A stretch of DNA of 64,000 nt. It comes from Microbacterium aurantiacum (lineage in GTDB: Bacteria; Actinomycetota; Actinomycetes; Actinomycetales; Microbacteriaceae). The notes under the pieces were generated by a model. The model ran no database searches. It worked only from the letters and a program-made list of their open reading frames with translations, and was not told the DNA's origin. A program made the translations under genes and the position numbers. The DNA lies in NCBI RefSeq assembly GCF_021654035.1, contig NZ_JAJPDW010000001.1:1054001-1118000 (forward strand), read 5' to 3'. How positions within the stretch are numbered: position 1 is the stretch's first letter; every line of letters begins with the position of its first letter. This document shows positions 9,702 through 49,553 of the stretch, piece by piece.

Positions 9702-9773
9702 GCCTCTGTAGCTCAATGGAAGAGCAGTTGCGTCCTAAGCAAACGGTTGGGGGTTCGAGTCCCTCCAGGGGCA
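9702..9773 (+). tRNA. tRNA-Arg (anticodon CCT)
   Basis: The 72-base cloverleaf has acceptor strands GCCTCTG and CAGGGGC (one G-T pair), a D-arm TAGCTC...GAGC, an anticodon stem TTGC/GCAA around the loop GTCCTAA (anticodon CCT, reading AGG), and a T-arm GGGGGTTCGAGTCCCTC. CCA is not encoded. Arg-CCT genes are common integration sites for actinobacterial elements, and an integrase gene lies just downstream. Confidence 0.93.
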
Positions 9774-9812
9774 CAGTCTCTTTTTGCATCTGACCAAGAC
9801 TTTCTTCTGTGG

Positions 9813-35125: not shown

Positions 35126-36337
35126 TCACGCGGCGATCGCGGTGGTGTGTGGCTGGTAGAGGGTGCCGTCGCGGAGCATGGCGTAGAGGACGTCCGATCG
35201 GCGTCTGGCGAGGGCGATGAGTGCTTGGTTGTGGCGTTTGCCTTGCGCGATCTTCCGGTCGTAGTAGGCGCGCGACTCGGGGTCGCGGAGCGCGGCGAAC
35301 GCGGAGAGGAACATGGCCCGTTTCAGGATTTTGTTCCCGCGGCGGGACGGATGCTCACCCCGGATGGAGGCCCCGGATCTGCGGGTGACGGGTACGAGGC
35401 CGGCGTAGGCGGCGAGGTGCCCGGCGGTCGGGAAGGTTCTGGTGGTGACTTCGGTGAGGAGCCGGGCTGCGGTCCTGACGCCGACTCCGGGCATGCTCGT
35501 CAGGACCGGCTGAAGAGGGTGCTGCTCGACGATCTTCTCGACCTCACCAGCGATCTCGTCCCGTTGCCTGCGCAGCGCGGCGAGCTGCTCCGCCAGCCGC
35601 GGGAGGACGAGCGCTGCCGCGTCGGTGCCGGTGACCACGACAGTCTGCTCACCGAGGGCGGTCACAATCTCGCCCGCCCAGACGCGACCCTTCCTCGGCG
35701 CGTTCTTGAGCAGCCGGTTCCCGAGCCTTTTCTCACCCGCTGATCGCATCGCCGCAGGGGACGGGTAGTGCTGCAGCAGGTCGAGCATCGCGGGATGGTC
35801 CAGCCGTGGCCCGATCACGCGTTCCAGCGCGGGGTGGATCTGGGTGAGAAGCCCGCGGATGCGGTTGCTGACTTGGGTGATCTGTCCGGCGAGGTCGTCG
35901 TCGAACCCGCAGAGCATCGACAGTTCCGCGACCTGCTCGTCCGCGACCTGGATCGAGCGGAGCGTGTGCGGCATCGTCCGTGCGGTCTCGGCGATGATCG
36001 CGGCGTCCCGCGCGTCGGTCTTCGCCTCGCCCGGGTGCAGATCGGCGATGCGCCGCATCGCCAGCCCGGGAAGGTAGCCGACCAGAGCCCCGAAAGCCTG
36101 CGCGACGGCGACCGGCAGCGCGCCGATCGTCGCCGGCTGATCCACGACCAGCAGCACGGTCCCGTGCGTCGCGAGCTGGTCGAGCACTGCCCGCAGTCGA
36201 CGCTCGTCGTTCGGCAACGGCTTGTCGAACAGCCGCTTGCCGGCCCGATCGAGGGCGACGGCGTGGTGTTCGCCCTTGCCGACATCGAGCCCGACGAACA
36301 CGCCGACCTCGTCGTATCTGTCGATACTGGTGACCAC
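35126..36337 (-). CDS. IS110-family DEDD transposase (recombinase)
   Basis: I start at GTG 36337 (VVTSIDRYDEV), five bases after GGAGG, giving 403 residues. The N-terminus has the RuvC-like DEDD domain (FVGLDVGKGEHHAVALD with the first Asp; TDARDAAIIAETAR with the later Asp pair). The C-terminal Transposase_20 domain contains the helix-hairpin TSMPGVGVRTAARLL and the serine-bearing region (RSGASIRGEHPSRRGN). Length and layout are full for the family. Transposition by these enzymes is guided by a structured RNA made from the element's own non-coding end. Confidence 0.92.
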   Translation of the reverse strand: MVTSIDRYDEVGVFVGLDVGKGEHHAVALDRAGKRLFDKPLPNDERRLRAVLDQLATHGTVLLVVDQPATIGALPVAVAQAFGALVGYLPGLAMRRIADLHPGEAKTDARDAAIIAETARTMPHTLRSIQVADEQVAELSMLCGFDDDLAGQITQVSNRIRGLLTQIHPALERVIGPRLDHPAMLDLLQHYPSPAAMRSAGEKRLGNRLLKNAPRKGRVWAGEIVTALGEQTVVVTGTDAAALVLPRLAEQLAALRRQRDEIAGEVEKIVEQHPLQPVLTSMPGVGVRTAARLLTEVTTRTFPTAGHLAAYAGLVPVTRRSGASIRGEHPSRRGNKILKRAMFLSAFAALRDPESRAYYDRKIAQGKRHNQALIALARRRSDVLYAMLRDGTLYQPHTTAIAA

Positions 36338-36560
36338 GTTGCCTCCGTTCGCTCCCGACGGCGTCCGCAGGCGGTGCGTCTCGGCATCCACGTTACGAAC
36401 GGCCTCGAGCGTGCTCGGGCCTGGCCCCTATCAGCGATCACACACCGCCAACCAGGCCCGGTGACAACACCCCCCCGGATCATCAAGGACAGGGGGCAGC
36501 AATCATGCCGGGCCCAGCAGGCCGTCACCGCCCAGCATCCTCCGCCAGACGGTCATGAAG
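36338..36560 (-). ncRNA. Candidate IS110 bridge-RNA region (unproven)
   Basis: This non-coding stretch lies directly upstream of the IS110 recombinase start, where IS110-group elements encode their guide (bridge) RNA. It contains several short complementary blocks (for example GGCCTGG and CCAGGCC near 36418-36462) that could form stem-loops. I cannot fold it here or define the RNA ends, so the call rests mainly on position. Confidence 0.35.
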
Positions 36561-37734: not shown

Positions 37735-38357
37735 GCGCGGTCTCCGTCGAGTCCTGGCCGCACGTCTTCACTCCCGGGGAGACAGACGCCCCGGTGTTGC
37801 TGACGCTGCACGGAACCGGTGGCAACGAGCAGGAGATCACCGGCATCGTCTCCCACCTCTGGCCCGGCGCCGGCGTGCTCTCTCCGCGCGGTCGCGTGAG
37901 CGAGAGCGGTATGAACCGCTGGTTTCGCCGGCTCGGTGAGGGCGTGTTCGACGTCGACGACGTGATCCAGCGCGCCGGGGAGCTGGCCGAGTTCATCACC
38001 GCCGCGCGCGAGCACTACGACCTCGCGGAGCGCCGCATCATCGCGGTCGGCTTCTCCAACGGCGCGAACATCGGCCTGGCGACGGCGCTCCTGCACCCCG
38101 AAGTGCTCGACCGCGTCGTCGCATTCAGCGGGATGTTCCCGTTCGCCGACCGCGACCCCATCGGCGACGTCTCCGCCGTCGAGGTCGTGCTGCTCAACGG
38201 AGTCGCCGACCCGATGGCTCCGTCGGCCTCGGTCAACCGGCTGGAAGAGGCCGCGGCATCCCACGGCGCGAAGGTGACGCGTCACACCCGCCCGGGCGGG
38301 CACGGACTCGCGCAGAGCGACATTGACGCCGCACGGGAGTGGCTCGCGGGGCGCTGA
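37731..38357 (+). CDS. mhqD: Carboxylesterase/phospholipase-like hydrolase (MhqD-like)
   Basis: The 208-residue alpha/beta hydrolase has the oxyanion region LTLHGTGGNEQE, the nucleophile elbow GFSNGANIG, an acid in NGVADPMAP and the catalytic His in PGGHGLAQ. This is the short carboxylesterase/phospholipase (YpfH/MhqD) type. It is translationally coupled to the MhqO-like dioxygenase and probably acts on its ring-cleavage products. Confidence 0.87.
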   Translation: MSAVSVESWPHVFTPGETDAPVLLTLHGTGGNEQEITGIVSHLWPGAGVLSPRGRVSESGMNRWFRRLGEGVFDVDDVIQRAGELAEFITAAREHYDLAERRIIAVGFSNGANIGLATALLHPEVLDRVVAFSGMFPFADRDPIGDVSAVEVVLLNGVADPMAPSASVNRLEEAAASHGAKVTRHTRPGGHGLAQSDIDAAREWLAGR

Positions 38358-38431
38358 GATCGGCATCCGTGGGGCTGGTCATGCGCTGGCCCCACGGCCC
38401 ATCTCACAGCTGGGCGCGAAACAATAGACGG

Positions 38432-39211
38432 ATGCACCCGAACCCGAAGCGTCGATTCGAACCGATCTACTCGATGGCGGTCGCCGCGGGCCGCGTGTTC
38501 TTCGGGGGAGTGCTGCAGCTCCGGCCGAAGATCACCGGCGCCGAGTCGATCCCCAAGTCCGGGCCGGCGGTGCTCGCGATCACCCACTTCGGATACATGG
38601 ACTTCGCCCTCGTCGAGTGGGTCGCGTGGTTGCGAACCCGTCGGCGGGTTCGGTACATGGTGACCAAGCGCGCCGCCGACAAGCCCGTCGTCGGCTGGCT
38701 GCTGGGGCAAATGCGACACATTCCGGTCGACATGTCCGCCGGACGCGACGCCTACACGAACGCGGTCGCGGCGCTGAGGCGCGGCGAGGTGCTCGGCGTC
38801 TTCCCCGAGGCGGGGGTCAGCGCGTCGTTCACGGTGCGAGAGCTTAAGACGGGGGCGGTGCGAATGGCAGCAGCCGCCGGTGTTCCGGTCATCCCCGTGG
38901 TCGTCTGGGGCGGACAGTTCCTTCGCACGAAGAACCACCGCGCGAGCTTCCGCGAGGCGTTCCGCGCTCCGATCCGCGTCTCGATCGGGAAGCCGATGCA
39001 CGTGAGTGAATCCGACGACCCGGTCGAGGCCACGGCCGCGTTGCGCACGGAGCTGGAGACGCTGCTCGCCGACGCGCAGGCGACCTATCCGCGTTCCGGC
39101 GACGGACAGTGGTGGCAGCCGGCGCACCTGGGTGGATCGGCGCCGACCCCCGAGGTCGCGGCAGCAATGGAAGCAGAGCGCCAGCGGAAGAGGGCTGCCG
39201 AGAAGCAGTGA
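38432..39211 (+). CDS. 1-acyl-glycerol-3-phosphate acyltransferase (PlsC-like)
   Basis: I start at ATG 38432 (MHPNPKRRFEPIYS). The 259-residue protein has the acyltransferase HX4D box (HFGYMD), the second motif (GVFPEAGVS, in place of FPEGTRS) and IPVVVWG. It would acylate lysophosphatidate at the inner membrane face. The last 12 codons lie inside the left direct repeat of the restriction island, and a variant copy of this tail (ending EKR instead of EKQ) is found at 43746-43782. Confidence 0.87.
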   Translation: MHPNPKRRFEPIYSMAVAAGRVFFGGVLQLRPKITGAESIPKSGPAVLAITHFGYMDFALVEWVAWLRTRRRVRYMVTKRAADKPVVGWLLGQMRHIPVDMSAGRDAYTNAVAALRRGEVLGVFPEAGVSASFTVRELKTGAVRMAAAAGVPVIPVVVWGGQFLRTKNHRASFREAFRAPIRVSIGKPMHVSESDDPVEATAALRTELETLLADAQATYPRSGDGQWWQPAHLGGSAPTPEVAAAMEAERQRKRAAEKQ

Positions 39212-39561
39212 ATGGGGGAGGATGCTCAGCATGGCCGAGGTACTGATCTTCCACCACATCCAGGGGCTCACCGACGGGGTGCGCGCCTTCGCCGATGACC
39301 TCCGGGGCGCGGGGCACACCGTGCACACGCCCGACCTCTTCGACGGGCGCACCTTCGCCACCATCGACGACGGGATCGCGTTCGCAAAGGAGGTAGGCTT
39401 CGATGCGCTGCGCGAGCGTGGAGTGACGCTCGCCGACGAGTACGGGCACCAACCTCGTCTACGCCGGGTTCTCGTTCGGCGTGATGATCGCGCAGCAGCT
39501 GGCGCAGACACGGCCCGGATGGGCGCGGAGCGCTCCTCATGTACTCCTGCATCCCCGTCTC
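39176..39561 (+). repeat. Left long direct repeat flanking the R-M island
   Basis: These 386 bases match 43746-44129 with roughly 95 percent identity by eye and two single-base length differences. The repeat covers the end of the acyltransferase gene and the first half of the dienelactone-hydrolase gene. It stops two bases before the stop codon of the first island gene. Confidence 0.88.
39231..39561 (+). pseudogene. Truncated dienelactone-hydrolase copy
   Basis: The start (MAEVLIFHHIQGLTDG) is the same as in the intact gene at 43801. The frame is broken by an extra base near 39445 (a GGG where the intact copy has GG) and again near 39518. The copy ends at the edge of the R-M island, before the active-site His region. 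It cannot make an active hydrolase. Confidence 0.85.
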
Positions 39562-39563
39562 AG

Positions 39564-41027
39564 TTAGTTGGGGAGCGCAGCTAGGACCGGCTCGCTCCAT
39601 TCCTTCGCGGCCTCCTGCCCGAAGACATCCCGCGTCCAGACGTCCGCGATAGCTTCCCAAACCTTTGACGGCCGCATGGTCCCCCCGATCCGCCGAGCGA
39701 TCTCGCCCGCCCAGGCGTGGTGGTTCTCGATCTGGAGGGCCGCATCCTTCGCGTCGAGAAGCTCCCCGACGGGCTGCCCCAGGCGCTCGGCCACCGCCTG
39801 CCAATGCGAGTCGTCGAGCGACTGAAACACGACACGTTCCGGCCGCTCCTCGCCCGGTAGTCGAAGGTAGGTAGCCCCTGATGGCTGCTCCCCATCAACG
39901 ATGCATAGACTTGCGCGCGGGAGCTTCGCCTTGCTCGCGACCGTGGAGAGCGCGATTACTGTGCTCGCAGGTCCGACGCTGGTGATCCGAGCCCGCTTCA
40001 GAGCTTCGGGTGCTCCGAGCGCGAGGATGCGCTCGATGAGGTAAACCGCTTCGTCGTCCTCGCAGTAGATGTCGAGTTCTTCGTGTCGTTCGTCGTCCAT
40101 CAGATTGAGCGCGAAGTCGGCCGTAACGCCGTGCAATACCTGACGCTCTGAGTCGCGATCGACGGAGACAAAGATGCGGGCGACGTCGGGCAATTGTTCA
40201 AGAATGAATTGGGAGTGCGTGGAGAGAATCACCTGCAACTTCTTGTCGAACGCAAGTCGGAGGATCTCCGTCATGAGGCCGCGTTGAGCCTGCGGATGCA
40301 GGGAAGCTTCCACCTCGTCGATGATTACGAGTGATTGGTTCGGGGCTTCATTGAGGAGTGCGATCAAGTCCAGGACCGAATCCTCACCGGCTCCCTGGTG
40401 GAAGTTGGAGTACGGAACTCCCCCCTGAGTCAGGATTCCTACTTGCTTGCCCTGATTCTCATCGATCCTCGCCGAGTCGTAGGTCCTCCCGAGGGTACGG
40501 TTCAGCTGGGTGACCTGTGAATCCGTTAGCGGCTTTTCAGTTCCCTGGCTGATGACTTCCTGCGCAGTGCGGCCATAGCCGATCAGCGTGTTCGCGGGCT
40601 GGATCCTGGAAATGTCGAGGAAGTACACGGCCCGGCGCTTGCGCTCCGGTGCGCCGCGCCAGCGAGACGTCGGCTTTCTGACTGTGTAGGAACTGGTCTC
40701 GTCTCCCTGCCGAACGGTGTAAGCGAGTATGACTCCGCTCACTTGTTCCCAGGGCGTGCTCGGAAAGAAATCGTCTGCGTAGTACGTGACCGTAGGCGAG
40801 CCGGCCGGCGCTTGGTATGCCGCGGCAGCAGCCTTGAGCACCGTGCTCTTCCCCGCACCGTTCGTCCCAGCTACTGCTACCACGGGGTACCTGAATTCAA
40901 CCGCCTGACCAGTCCAGCCGCGCAACCCGTCGATTTTGATGGAGGTCAGAAACAGCGGCCATCCGGATTGCGAGTGACGCGCAGTATCCCAGGCGCTGCT
41001 CAGCTTCGATGCGGTGGGTGCGACCAC
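39564..41027 (-). CDS. OLD-like ATPase with possible TOPRIM end
   Basis: The gene starts at GTG 41027, five bases after AGGAG. The 487-residue protein has an SMC/ABC-type ATPase half with Walker A AGTNGAGKS, a signature-like region near 215-230, and Walker B VIIDEVEASLHPQAQ with the H-loop LSTHSQF. After residue 330 come EELDIYCEDDEAVYLI and ASLCIVDGEQ, which fit the acidic motifs of a TOPRIM nuclease, as in OLD/Gabija GajA proteins. It lies 47 bp downstream of the PD-(D/E)XK gene, as the last member of the R-M island operon. Confidence 0.82.
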   Translation of the reverse strand: MVAPTASKLSSAWDTARHSQSGWPLFLTSIKIDGLRGWTGQAVEFRYPVVAVAGTNGAGKSTVLKAAAAAYQAPAGSPTVTYYADDFFPSTPWEQVSGVILAYTVRQGDETSSYTVRKPTSRWRGAPERKRRAVYFLDISRIQPANTLIGYGRTAQEVISQGTEKPLTDSQVTQLNRTLGRTYDSARIDENQGKQVGILTQGGVPYSNFHQGAGEDSVLDLIALLNEAPNQSLVIIDEVEASLHPQAQRGLMTEILRLAFDKKLQVILSTHSQFILEQLPDVARIFVSVDRDSERQVLHGVTADFALNLMDDERHEELDIYCEDDEAVYLIERILALGAPEALKRARITSVGPASTVIALSTVASKAKLPRASLCIVDGEQPSGATYLRLPGEERPERVVFQSLDDSHWQAVAERLGQPVGELLDAKDAALQIENHHAWAGEIARRIGGTMRPSKVWEAIADVWTRDVFGQEAAKEWSEPVLAALPN

Positions 41028-41074
41028 TGTTGCTCCTAACGGTGTTGGCTAGCCGCTGAGCGACGAGGGGAAGT

Positions 41075-41962
41075 TCAGATTCCCACGAATCTTGTGTCAT
41101 ACTCAGTCGCCATGCGTTCGATCATGCGTGCGTAGTTGTCCGAGTCGCTCGTGCCAGGTGCCGGCGGTCCGCTGACGATCGACACGGGGCCTCCGTCGTT
41201 AGCGAAGTCGAGCACAGTGATGCCGATGCCATCGAAACCGTTCTCGGACTGGCGTGTGCGGCGGGGTAGCTCACGGATCTTCGAGACGACCCGTGCGGTG
41301 TCGCCCGGCTGCTTGTGCTTCGTGTAGCGGGCGGGGAACTCTGTGAGCGCGTAGTTGTTGGTCACGGAGGACATGAACTCCTCGGCGGCATTTACCTGGA
41401 CATATGCGATGGCGAGTGCCTGCGCTGACGCGCCGTGCACGCAGACGTGCGATGAGTTCAGTTCGTCGTACAGCCGCGGGAGCGCTTTAATGTGCGCGGT
41501 CATTGCCGCCTTTGCCTCCAATGCGACGAGAACCGCCCCGACGGGAGCAACGGGGAACTCGGGCAGACCATCCAGAGTCGCGAGCTCGGCGGATGTAAGT
41601 GGCGCACCGTAGTCGAGCGCGAGGCTACTGAGGCTCCGATGCGGGGTAGGCACGGATCCCGCTGGGCGGGCGATGACAAGGTCGAGATCCTTCTTGCGTC
41701 CCGTTGCGAAGTCGCGCATCTCATGATTCACACCCAGTACGACCTTGCCGTCCTCCACATGGCGCCGAAGCAAGCTCGATGTGAGGAGCAGGTCGAACGC
41801 CACGCCCCAGCACCCGACCTTGGAGTGACGATCGGAGCGAGAGTTGTACTGCCAGACGTTGCCGTGGCTATCAGGCGGTCCCGGGGTCGACAAGAATCGC
41901 GCCAGCAGCTCGGGTCCATGCATGTTTCCGAGGCTATCGGCTCGATGCGGCTCCGATGTCAT
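41075..41962 (-). CDS. Putative type II restriction endonuclease (PD-(D/E)XK)
   Basis: The 295-residue protein overlaps the vsr gene by 29 bp if started at 41962; ATG 41923 is an alternative. It contains KKDLDLVIARP followed about 70 residues later by GAVLVALEAKAAMTAHIK, which fits a D...ExK nuclease core. Its place beside a C5-methyltransferase and vsr is where the cognate restriction enzyme is expected. The recognition site is unknown. Confidence 0.7.
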   Translation of the reverse strand: MTSEPHRADSLGNMHGPELLARFLSTPGPPDSHGNVWQYNSRSDRHSKVGCWGVAFDLLLTSSLLRRHVEDGKVVLGVNHEMRDFATGRKKDLDLVIARPAGSVPTPHRSLSSLALDYGAPLTSAELATLDGLPEFPVAPVGAVLVALEAKAAMTAHIKALPRLYDELNSSHVCVHGASAQALAIAYVQVNAAEEFMSSVTNNYALTEFPARYTKHKQPGDTARVVSKIRELPRRTRQSENGFDGIGITVLDFANDGGPVSIVSGPPAPGTSDSDNYARMIERMATEYDTRFVGI

Positions 41963-42377
41963 TGACGCGGCGCGCGACGACCCGCCCGATCTCCGCTGCT
42001 GCTTCGACTGGGCTCTGATGCTCCCAAATTCGGATCACGAACCAATCTCTCTCCATCAGAGCGCGGCTGGTATCTGCGTCACGCTGTCGGTTCGCTTCGA
42101 TCTTCGATCTCCACCAGTCCGCGTTCGTCTTGGACTGTGTGGCGTGAAGGGGACAGCCGTGCCAGTAGCACCCATCAACGAACACGGCAACGCGAAGTCT
42201 GGTGAACGCCACGTCGATCGTTCTCCGCGGCCGTCCAGGCACGGGAAACTGGACACGGTAGCGGAGACCGGCGGCGTGAAGAAGTCTGCGGACCGCCATC
42301 TCGGCGGCGGTATCACGTTGGCCGACGCGGGCCATTCGGCTCGATGTCTTGCTGGAGGTCGCTTCGAACTCGCTCAT
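41934..42377 (-). CDS. vsr: Very short patch repair endonuclease
   Basis: The 147-residue protein shows the Vsr signature: SRMARVGQRDTAAE, the catalytic RTIDVAF Asp, VAVFVDGCYWHGCP with the zinc-site residues, then WW..KI..NRQRD and VIRIWEHQ. Vsr nicks T-G mismatches left by deamination of 5-methylcytosine, so it protects the genome from the neighbouring methyltransferase. Its start lies 16 bases after the methyltransferase stop. Confidence 0.93.
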   Translation of the reverse strand: MSEFEATSSKTSSRMARVGQRDTAAEMAVRRLLHAAGLRYRVQFPVPGRPRRTIDVAFTRLRVAVFVDGCYWHGCPLHATQSKTNADWWRSKIEANRQRDADTSRALMERDWFVIRIWEHQSPVEAAAEIGRVVARRVNDIGAASSR

Positions 42378-42392
42378 GCCACTCCTTCGGCC

Positions 42393-43607
42393 TTAACGAA
42401 AGAGCGGCTCGCTTCCAGTCTGGGCGCGCTCAAGTGCATCGATGTGTTCCTGTACATCGGCGCGGAAGCCGGGGTAGCGGCCGAGATTGCCTTGTTGCAG
42501 GCGGTTCCAGAAACCCTTGGCACCTCGGAGACTCAGTGCTTCTGCAGCGGATGCGTCGATCATCTGCGCGAGGTGGTTGTACCCCTCGTGCGTGGGGAAC
42601 TCGGAAAGGTCGACGGGAACTTGGATGCGTCCTGCCGATCCGGCAGCAGCAGCTGGCCATGCGCCTCGGCCGGGCTCCCAATCCCGGAACTCGACGACGG
42701 GGTCGCCTGGAGAGAGGAGTCGGCTACCTACCCATCGGGAGACTCCGACGGTCACAGCATTGCCGACGAGCTTCCACCGGGGGCCGTTGCGCCGCGACGA
42801 CAGGTGTTCTACGTTGGTCCACCCTCGGTCGAAACCCTGCATCGCTTCGGCGTCCTCGACGGAGGGCTTGACGAGCCGGCGACCGAGCTCGGCGCCCCGA
42901 ACCCACACGGCCGGCGGTGATGGAATCCCGATGGTCGACCCGCCTTTGAGTGTCGGCACTGCGTCCTGTGCCCAACCGAGGCCGCCGCGCCCTTCGGTCC
43001 AATAGAAACCGAACATGTCGTCGTGGAAGTCGTCGGATCGATCGCCCGCATCATCTGCGAAGAGGATCGACTTGGGGTCGAAGTCGACCGACGCGACCAG
43101 GATCACGCGTCGACGTCGCTGAGGAACGCCTGTGAAGCGTGAGTCGACTACGCGGTAGGCCCACGGGTACCCCAGCCGCTCGATCTCGGCGATGAGGTAA
43201 CTCATAGCCTTGCCGCGATCGAGGGCGAGCATGTTCGGGACGTTCTCGATCAGAAGGGTCGGCAGATGCCCGGTGCGCTCCTGCGCATCCTCCAGTAGCC
43301 GGAACACGTTCACGACAAGACCGGAGTTCTCGCCGGCGATGCCGGCGGTCCTGCCTGCTTGCGACAGGTCGGTGCAAGGAAAACCCGCCGTGACGAGGTT
43401 CGTCCCGTCTGGGAGCTTTCTCATGTTGCGCACATCGGTGTCGATCGGTACGCCCTCGAAACGCGCGCGAAGGACTGCTTGCGCGGGTTCCCACCATTCG
43501 CAGAACGTCAGGGTCTCGATCTGATTGCCAAGAGCGCGTTCCAGCCCTAGCTCTACCCCGCCGATACCAGCGAAGAGCCCGGCCACTTTCCACGATGCGT
43601 TCGACAT
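42393..43607 (-). CDS. DNA cytosine-5 methyltransferase
   Basis: The 404-residue enzyme has C5-methyltransferase motif I LFAGIGG, motif IV GFPCTDLS with catalytic Cys78, motif VI ENVPN (Glu121), motif VIII GVPQRRRRV and motif X GNAVTVGVS. The target domain lies between VIII and X. After motif X a 100-residue extension (REFRDWEPGRG... to QEHIDALERAQ) is unusual and not recognised. It is the first gene of the island operon. Confidence 0.93.
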   Translation of the reverse strand: MSNASWKVAGLFAGIGGVELGLERALGNQIETLTFCEWWEPAQAVLRARFEGVPIDTDVRNMRKLPDGTNLVTAGFPCTDLSQAGRTAGIAGENSGLVVNVFRLLEDAQERTGHLPTLLIENVPNMLALDRGKAMSYLIAEIERLGYPWAYRVVDSRFTGVPQRRRRVILVASVDFDPKSILFADDAGDRSDDFHDDMFGFYWTEGRGGLGWAQDAVPTLKGGSTIGIPSPPAVWVRGAELGRRLVKPSVEDAEAMQGFDRGWTNVEHLSSRRNGPRWKLVGNAVTVGVSRWVGSRLLSPGDPVVEFRDWEPGRGAWPAAAAGSAGRIQVPVDLSEFPTHEGYNHLAQMIDASAAEALSLRGAKGFWNRLQQGNLGRYPGFRADVQEHIDALERAQTGSEPLFR

Positions 43608-43617
43608 GTTTGCGCTC

Positions 43618-43745
43618 CTAGTTCACGTCAAACCGTACTCGAGATTCGGTCAGAACTCGAGTCGACGGGCTGACCGCGAAGATACGCGCGACCTCGGACA
43701 TTGAGCGGTCCGTCGAGGTGGCGGTGGTACGCCGAGGACCGGACG
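43618..43745 (-). pseudogene. Helix-turn-helix remnant at the island edge
   Basis: The last 42 or so codons of a minus-strand frame end at TAG 43618 and include TDRSMSEVARIFAVSPST, which looks like the HTH of a serine resolvase or invertase. The rest of such a gene is absent. It lies between the methyltransferase start and the right direct repeat, and may be a leftover of the mobile element or part of the promoter region. Confidence 0.35.
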
Positions 43746-44129
43746 GAGCGCCAGCGGATGAGGGCTGCCGAAAAGCGGTGAATGGGGGAGGATGCTCAGC
43801 ATGGCCGAGGTGCTGATCTTCCACCACATCCAGGGGCTCACCGACGGGGTGCGCGCGTTCGCCGATGACCTCCGGCGCGCGGGGCACACCGTGCACACCC
43901 CCGACCTCTTCGACGGGCGCACCTTCGACACCATCGACGACGGGATCGCGTTCGCACAGGAGATCGGCTTCGATGCGCTGCGCGAGCGTGGAGTGGCGCT
44001 CGCCGACGAGTGCGGCACCGACCTCGTGTACGCCGGGTTCTCGTTCGGCGTGATGATCGCGCAGCAGCTGGCGCAGACACGGCCCGGCGCTCGCGGAGCG
44101 CTCCTCATGTACTCCTGCATCCCCGTCTC
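43746..44129 (+). repeat. Right long direct repeat flanking the R-M island
   Basis: This copy begins with the last 12 codons of an acyltransferase-like gene (ERQRMRAAEKR) and runs into the intact dienelactone hydrolase. It pairs with 39176-39561. Confidence 0.88.
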
Positions 44130-48070: not shown

Positions 48071-48139
48071 TCATCCGAGGGTAGACGGATGCCGCGCCCC
48101 TGTGTACCCGGCGCGTGCACGGCGCGACCGTTCGCCAGC

Positions 48140-48203
48140 GCGCACCCGTTTCGTGAGCGCGCACCCGATCGGATACTCCCTCACGAAACGGATGCGCACT
48201 CGG
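48140..48203. repeat. 64-bp palindromic repeat, copy A
   Basis: The two ends form an 18-base inverted repeat with one mismatch (GCGCACCCGTTTCGTGAG against its near complement), around a centre with GATCGGATACTCC. It recurs at 48623-48686. Copies flank a small monooxygenase gene. It looks like a dispersed REP-type element. Confidence 0.8.
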
Positions 48204-48322
48204 GCGGGGTGGGTGCGCCCTTCGGGGGTCGCTGTTCCGCACACCGCCGAGACCGCATCCATCGCCCGAGACCGCATGCAGTTGGGTGTGGGTGCGGGTG
48301 CTCGGCCGCGTACGCTCGACGG

Positions 48323-48604: not shown

Positions 48605-48622
48605 CCCGCATCCGCCCCGATC

Positions 48623-48686
48623 GCGCACCCGTTCCGCGAGTGCGCACCCGATCGGATACTCCCTCACGAAACGGATGCGCACTCGG
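48623..48686. repeat. 64-bp palindromic repeat, copy B
   Basis: Same length and orientation as copy A, with three differences near its start (GTTCCGCGAGTG in place of GTTTCGTGAGCG), which weaken the hairpin on that side. The last 46 bases are nearly identical in both copies. Confidence 0.8.
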
Positions 48687-48757
48687 CCGGGTCGTGCCGG
48701 CGGCGGTCACCCACGGCAGCAGCGACCCGCGGCAGCGACCCGCGCCCGCGCACCGAC

Positions 48758-49118
48758 CTACGCGTCGACCGCGACCGGGATGCGGCGGTTCACGCGCTCC
48801 GACATGACGATGCCGAGGAGTACGAGCACGGCGAGGAAGAGCGGGAAGGTCCAGAGGCCGAGCCAGGCCGACAGGGCGCCGAACAGCGGCGGGGCGAGGG
48901 TCGACCCGGTGTACGCGGAGGCCATCTGGATGCCGATGATCGCCTGCGAGTTGCGGCGGCCGAAGTTCACCGGCGTGGAGTGGATGATCGCGGGGTAGAT
49001 GGGCGCGCAGCCGAGGCCGGCGACGGTCAGGCCGATGAGGGCGAACACGTCCGTGTCGACCGGCAGTGCCATGAGCACCACCCCGAGGGCCGCCGTGAGG
49101 AAGCCGCCGCGGATTTGC
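48758..49118 (-). pseudogene. MFS transporter, C-terminal fragment
   Basis: About 120 codons encode the last four helices of a major facilitator (ALGVVLMALPVDTDVFALIGLTVAGLGCAPIYPAIIH...). The frame is cut at about 49118, where an IS3-type transposase remnant begins on the opposite strand. The first eight helices are missing, so no transporter can be made. Confidence 0.75.
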
Positions 49119-49553
49119 GCGATCAAGGACGTGTTCTCGGGCCGGATCGTGGGGTACTCGATCAGCGACCGGATGAAGGCCCGCCTCGCGGTCGACGCGG
49201 TCAACAGCGCCGTCGCACGGCGCGGGAACGTCGCCGGCTGCGTGGTCCACACCGACAGAGGATCTCGGTTCCGCGCGAGGAAGATGGTCCGCACCCTGCA
49301 CCACCACGGGATGATCGGATCAATGGGCCGCGTCGGCGCGGCGGGCGACACCGCGGCGATGGAATCGGTCTTCAGCCTGCTGCAGAACGTCCTCAACCGG
49401 CGCACCTGGGCCACCCGCGACGAGCTCCGCATCGCCATCGTGACCTGGATCGAACGCACCTACCACCGACGCCGCCGGCAGAAGCGGCTCCATGGGTTGA
49501 CCCCGGTCGAGTACGAAGCAATCATGAACACCGACGTCGCCCTCGCGGCGTGA
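49119..49553 (+). pseudogene. IS3-family transposase, C-terminal fragment
   Basis: The roughly 144 codons from AIKDVFSGRIVGYSI to the stop encode the end of an rve integrase core of an IS3/IS150-type OrfB, with HTDRGSRFRARK (second Asp) and the catalytic Glu in DTAAMESVFSLL, and the tail RRRRQKRLHGLTPVEYE. The N-terminal half and the HTH OrfA are absent. It replaces the front of the MFS gene. Confidence 0.85.

What the first reader, a model, noticed from the sequence alone, without database searches (positions are those of the whole stretch)
39176..44129. R-M island inserted with a long, now diverged, target duplication
A roughly 385-bp host segment appears on both sides of a four-gene R-M unit, with the island edges exactly at the repeat edges. 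The left copy has two frameshifts and is truncated; the right leads to an intact gene. R-M units are known to insert with long target duplications. The 5 percent divergence means either an old event or import of the right flank from another strain.
Basis: partly seen in the sequence, partly recalled or inferred. Interest (0 to 1): 0.7.

Follow-up and report, generated by a model that had tools for sequence, protein, structure and literature searches.

The report
Restriction-modification island between duplicated target segments
A four-gene DNA-defence cassette sits in a Microbacterium-type chromosome exactly between two 5%-different copies of a 385-base host segment, the footprint expected when such a cassette inserts and duplicates its target; this is a known kind of event, and no strain with the empty site was available to prove it.

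Summary
A 386/384-bp segment (39176-39561 and 43746-44129, 95% identical) brackets a 4.18-kb lower-GC cassette: C5 methyltransferase, Vsr, a putative endonuclease and an AAA (OLD/PtuA-like) ATPase. It is the only direct repeat over 100 bp that blastn finds in the window. Each copy holds the end of the acyltransferase gene, the spacer and the 5' part of a hydrolase gene, so it duplicates a gene junction. The left hydrolase copy has two 1-base insertions and is cut short; the right is intact.

Independent support: the same unit occurs in another genome of the genus (87% DNA identity), inside a tRNA-Phe integrative element, and its methyltransferase end in a third. Clear homology to these stops at or close to the repeat edges.

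The decisive test could not be run: none of the loci examined has the acyltransferase-hydrolase junction, empty or filled. The 5% divergence cannot be dated or assigned; the substitutions do not separate decay after insertion from import of another allele.

Best reading: insertion of a mobile R-M unit with long target duplication, a described kind of event. Rivals are import with one homologous flank, or duplication first. New member of a known kind.

The parts
38339..39211 (+). PlsC-type acyltransferase ORF; its last 36 bp begin the left repeat
   Evidence: Pfam Acyltransferase E 3.5e-26; 66-83% identical homologues at E <= 1e-40 in 4 other genomes of 366 searched, own included
39176..39561 (+). 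left copy of the duplicated segment: acyltransferase tail + spacer + broken 5' part of hydrolase (from 39222), with two 1-base insertions
39564..41027 (-). AAA ATPase, OLD/PtuA-like (PADLOC HEC-04); its stop codon is the left end of the island
   Evidence: AAA_21 E 9.2e-20; HEC-04 E 7.1e-56; OLD-family chain 6p74 E 4.2e-5
41075..41962 (-). putative restriction endonuclease; conserved D94...E149-x-K151 reminiscent of PD-(D/E)XK
   Evidence: no Pfam/PADLOC/NCBIfam hit at E <= 0.001; found next to vsr and dcm-type genes in 6 other loci; alignment A1 of 6 sequences
41934..42377 (-). Vsr mismatch endonuclease
   Evidence: TIGR00632 E 1e-29, above cut-off
42393..43607 (-). C5-cytosine DNA methyltransferase
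   Evidence: PF00145 E 1.9e-36; PADLOC MTase_II E 4.1e-119
43608..43745 (-). upstream region of the methyltransferase, still part of the unit
   Evidence: shared with G148 up to 43745 and with G280 up to about 43737
43733..43744 (+). CGAGGACCGGAC, at or near the right end of the unit in three loci
43746..44129 (+). right copy of the duplicated segment
43792..44370 (+). intact dienelactone-hydrolase-family gene
   Evidence: PF01738 E 8.4e-15

Best explanation
A horizontally mobile R-M unit (methyltransferase, Vsr, putative endonuclease, ATPase; 39564-43745) entered a chromosome in which the acyltransferase and hydrolase genes were adjacent. The insertion left a roughly 385-bp stretch of that junction on both sides of the unit (insertion with long target duplication). 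The acyltransferase and one complete hydrolase survive; the left, 3'-truncated hydrolase copy is a broken remnant. Shown: the repeats, their closeness to unit ends seen in other genomes, the mobility of the unit, and the broken left copy. Inferred: that the target was single-copy before insertion, that one event made both junctions, and the molecular route (for example repair of a widely staggered break, or replication-coupled joining of a linear or circular R-M molecule).
For: The only long direct repeat found in the window brackets the unit. The repeat spans a gene-gene junction and includes the acyltransferase tail in the right copy, which a simple gene duplication does not require. The unit's ends were placed from other sites: G280 carries the same four genes at 87.0% nt identity elsewhere, with the ATPase homologous to its last residue; G148 matches to 43745. 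The 12-mer at the right end occurs in the 1.09 Mb held (overlapping loci included) only near that end of the unit in three loci. Island GC is 62.7% against 69.4% and 69.9% in the flanks. None of the four genes is an integrase or transposase. R-M insertion with long target duplication is described in print (passages seen in PMC3031569, PMC3874152, PMC1643837).
Against: No empty-site allele was found, so 'target' and 'single event' are inferred. Of 7 loci of this endonuclease family examined, only this one shows long repeats directly at the unit's edges; G280's repeats look like att sites of a larger element, and 5 of 7 have none at E <= 0.01. The blastn match with G280 runs 13 bp past the right edge (to 43758), so that edge is sharp to the base only against G148. 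The repeats differ by 5%, so they were not shown to be identical at insertion.
Confidence: 0.62

Rival explanations
1. Import with one homologous flank: DNA from another strain, in which the R-M unit already lay upstream of the acyltransferase tail and hydrolase, recombined homologously on the right and illegitimately on the left inside the resident hydrolase. The left copy is then the resident allele and the right copy the donor allele.
For: Divergence of 5% (dS 0.10) with w 0.32, close to 0.19-0.28 for functional homologue pairs, as expected if much of the divergence is allelic. Both copies carry changes unique to them.
Against: It needs a donor that already has the unit abutting the acyltransferase tail at the unit's right end, so some insertion event is still required. 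No such donor was seen among the loci examined from 366 genus genomes.
Confidence: 0.22
2. Campbell-type integration: a circular R-M molecule that carried its own copy of the 385-bp segment entered by a single crossover, duplicating the segment.
For: It gives direct repeats exactly at the edges of the insert. The G280 element suggests that the unit can travel on an integrating element with its own att copy.
Against: No plasmid backbone or integrase gene was recognised between the repeats. The circle would have had to consist of little but the unit and the segment.
Confidence: 0.09
3. The segment was duplicated in tandem first, and the R-M unit then inserted at the junction of the two copies.
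For: Not excluded: no relative at this locus was found.
Against: It needs two events and an insertion at the junction of the copies; both unit ends fall on or within a few bases of the repeat edges.
Confidence: 0.07

Closest known systems
Insertion with long target duplication of R-M units (Nobusato et al. 2000; Furuta et al. 2010)
   Same: R-M unit without recognised mobility genes, flanked by direct repeats of target sequence; a passage of PMC3874152 gives their size as 'in the order of 100 bp'
   Different: Here four genes including an ATPase; repeats of about 385 bp that have diverged 5%; empty site not seen. The two primary papers were not read: the second is not held, the first is known to me only from citations
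tRNA-Phe integrative element carrying the same unit in G280 (L111)
   Same: Same four genes in the same order, 87.0% nt identity
   Different: There the unit is cargo with a tyrosine recombinase and 136-bp repeats 10.2 kb apart that include the tRNA 3' end; here no recombinase, and the repeats abut the unit
Composite transposon with R-M cargo between IS copies
   Same: R-M genes between direct repeats
   Different: The repeats here are acyltransferase/hydrolase sequence, not IS; the two transposase genes seen nearby (IS110 type, rve type) differ from each other and lie outside the repeats

Membership tests
Insertion with long target duplication | R-M unit bracketed by long direct repeats | tested here: met
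Insertion with long target duplication | repeat edges coincide with unit edges | tested here: met
   right edge at the base against G148; against G280 the clear match fades about 8 bp before it while blastn runs 13 bp past it; left edge 3 bp from the ATPase stop codon
Insertion with long target duplication | segment single-copy in relatives without the island | tested here: inconclusive
   no relative with the acyltransferase-hydrolase junction among the loci examined
Insertion with long target duplication | no recombinase or transposase in the insert | tested here: met
   none of the four genes matches one
Type II R-M system | DNA methyltransferase | tested here: met
   PF00145, TIGR00675
Type II R-M system | cognate endonuclease | tested here: inconclusive
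   41075-41962 has no family hit; neighbour of vsr/dcm-type genes and conserved D...ExK; structure model unusable, pLDDT 32.5
tRNA-integrated element | integrase and tRNA-derived att repeats at this locus | tested here: not met
   only tRNA found in the window is at 9702-9774; none of the four island genes is an integrase
IS-flanked composite transposon | flanking repeats are IS copies | tested here: not met
   repeats are acyltransferase/hydrolase sequence

The most novel reading that the evidence does not exclude
The four-gene unit is itself an autonomous mobile element with fixed ends (ATPase stop codon at one end, CGAGGACCGGAC at the other). It can ride on integrative elements or insert alone with long target duplications, perhaps with its own nuclease and ATPase taking part.
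Probability: 0.12. Interest if true: 0.6.

Novelty: new member of a known kind. Interest (0 to 1): 0.33.

Why it matters
How R-M units without recombinases move is, to my knowledge, unsettled. This locus adds a case beyond the Helicobacter examples cited in the papers I saw, and both ends of the unit can be placed by comparison with the same unit at other sites. With one empty-site strain the event could be polarised and its mechanism narrowed.

Tried and rejected
Empty site: sought with hydrolase DNA in 366 genus genomes, own included (a DNA search, which misses diverged copies; loci were given for the best 30 genomes only), acyltransferase protein at E <= 1e-40 in the same 366, hydrolase protein in a family sample of 398, acyltransferase in genome contigs (25 loci), and 2.5 kb of left flank in 38 genomes, own included. 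No locus examined had both genes in the flanks fetched.

Dating the repeats: relative-rate counts (left-unique 6-9, right-unique 3-6 against each of 7 outgroups, all p > 0.2) and dN/dS do not discriminate. I first expected the nonsynonymous changes to prove decay in place; the comparison with functional pairs did not bear this out.

Composite transposon and tRNA integration were rejected at this locus: repeats are not IS, no tRNA nearby and no integrase among the four genes. Long terminal inverted repeats: none of 30 bp or more in 37-47 kb; shorter ones were not searched for.

Structure of the putative endonuclease: single-sequence model useless; searches of solved structures found no credible match. 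Viral contigs and phages gave no relative of it.

Full report
What is there. A segment of 386 bp (39176-39561) recurs at 43746-44129 with 94.8% identity. blastn finds no other direct repeat of 100 bp or more in the window, and a search of the own genome gave only these two places. The segment runs from the last 36 bp of an acyltransferase ORF, through a short spacer, into a dienelactone-hydrolase-family ORF. In the left copy the acyltransferase is complete, and the hydrolase part has two 1-base insertions and stops at 39561. In the right copy only the acyltransferase tail is present and the hydrolase is complete (192 aa). Acyltransferases of other genomes align with that tail, so it is a gene end and not chance.

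The island. Between the copies lie four genes on the - strand: a C5 methyltransferase (42393-43607), Vsr (41934-42377), a 295-aa protein without family hits (41075-41962), and an AAA ATPase (39564-41027) related to PADLOC HEC-04, PtuA and OLD proteins. Relatives of the 295-aa protein stand next to vsr and dcm-type genes in six other loci, including two rhizobial plasmids and a genome of another genus. In the six sequences aligned, D94, E149 and K151 are invariant. By my recollection of the PD-(D/E)XK motif this makes it the likely endonuclease; the structure model was useless. Island GC is 62.7%, flanks 69.4% and 69.9%.

Placement of the edges from other sites. G280, of the same genus, has the whole four-gene unit at 87.0% nt identity. 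There it is cargo of what looks like an integrative element beside tRNA-Phe, with a tyrosine recombinase and 136-bp, 88%-identical repeats that include the tRNA 3' end. G148 has the same methyltransferase (96% aa), more distant vsr (68%) and endonuclease (51%) genes, and no match to the ATPase. The match of window and G148 runs to 43745 and stops where the right repeat begins. The blastn match with G280 runs from 39580 to 43758, i.e. 13 bp past the right edge; in the global alignment the clear match ends after about 43737. On the left the G280 ATPase is homologous to the last residue, whose stop codon lies 3 bp from the left repeat, and the sequences part beyond it. The 12-mer CGAGGACCGGAC occurs in the 1.09 Mb held (overlapping loci included) only at 43733, at L113:12252 and at L111:12044, apart from repeat fetches of the window. 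In G280 about 26 extra bases precede it, so there its place as the unit's end is an interpretation.

What could not be shown. In 366 genus genomes (own included) the hydrolase was found by DNA in 11 others: 10 matches over 500 bp and one short match confirmed by tblastn. The acyltransferase was found in 4 others. None of the loci examined had both genes: those 11 and 4 with 1.5-kb flanks (some flanks are cut by contig ends); 4 of the 11 and 3 of the 4 again in stretches of 9.5-18 kb; 29 hydrolase loci, from the 63 other genomes with a hit in a family sample of 398, with 1.5 kb, 3 of them again in 18-kb stretches; and 25 acyltransferase loci from genome contigs with up to 9 kb each side. The junction is therefore known only from this genome; both collections hold one genome per species. 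That the target was single-copy before insertion is inferred from the junction itself.

The 5% divergence. The copies differ by 19 substitutions and two indels, counting one substitution just past the repeat edge. Over the hydrolase codons there are 8 synonymous and 8 nonsynonymous changes (w 0.32); eight pairs of functional homologues give 0.19-0.28. Changes unique to the left copy exceed those unique to the right (6-9 against 3-6, depending on outgroup), not significantly, and both indels are in the left copy. A tree gives the left branch twice the length of the right (0.035 and 0.017). This suits an old event with decay of the left copy, and equally a resident left allele with an imported right flank.

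Mechanism. Long, variable target duplications by R-M units are described: I saw passages of PMC3031569, PMC3874152, PMC1643837, PMC3154945, PMC2749054 and PMC4978471, but not the two primary papers. I take insertion with long target duplication as the most likely reading (0.62). Import with one homologous flank, single-crossover entry of a small circle, and duplication before insertion remain. Seven loci of the endonuclease family were checked for flanking repeats: this locus has them at the unit's edges, G280 has repeats of a larger element, five have none at E <= 0.01. Long repeats are therefore not a constant companion of this unit.

Verdict. A sound observation, reasonably interpreted, of a known kind. 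In the two searches of the held library for 'long target duplication' (17 and 19 papers), no title or shown abstract opening concerned an actinobacterial case; I read passages of six of those papers and none in full.

Noticed in passing
L111 7581-7715 and 17792-17927 (G280): Apparent 10.2-kb integrative element at tRNA-Phe with tyrosine recombinase, HTH protein, DUF4365 and Hypoth_Ymh genes carries the same R-M unit; the repeat copy away from the intact tRNA is less like G148's tRNA region (82%) than the copy at the tRNA (88%).
   Followed up: partly
L112 5768-10338 and L127 7513-12083: Genomes of two genera share a sharply bounded 4.57-kb block (87% identical) holding a related vsr-methyltransferase-endonuclease set plus two further ORFs; no other match between the two stretches.
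   Followed up: partly
L113 9500-12256 (G148): Methyltransferase 96% identical to the window's, but vsr 68% and endonuclease 51%: a mosaic R-M unit.
   Followed up: no
window 48139-48208 and 48622-48691: 70-bp repeat, 94% identical, with a further match in inverted orientation: a small repeat cluster.
   Followed up: no
window 35126-36391 and 48999-49553: IS110-type transposase and an rve-type transposase piece on either side of the region, unlike each other.
   Followed up: no
L111 7285-7308 and 12041-12064: A 24-bp direct repeat (92%), the right copy of which holds the unit's end motif, brackets the unit and the left repeat of the element in G280.
   Followed up: no
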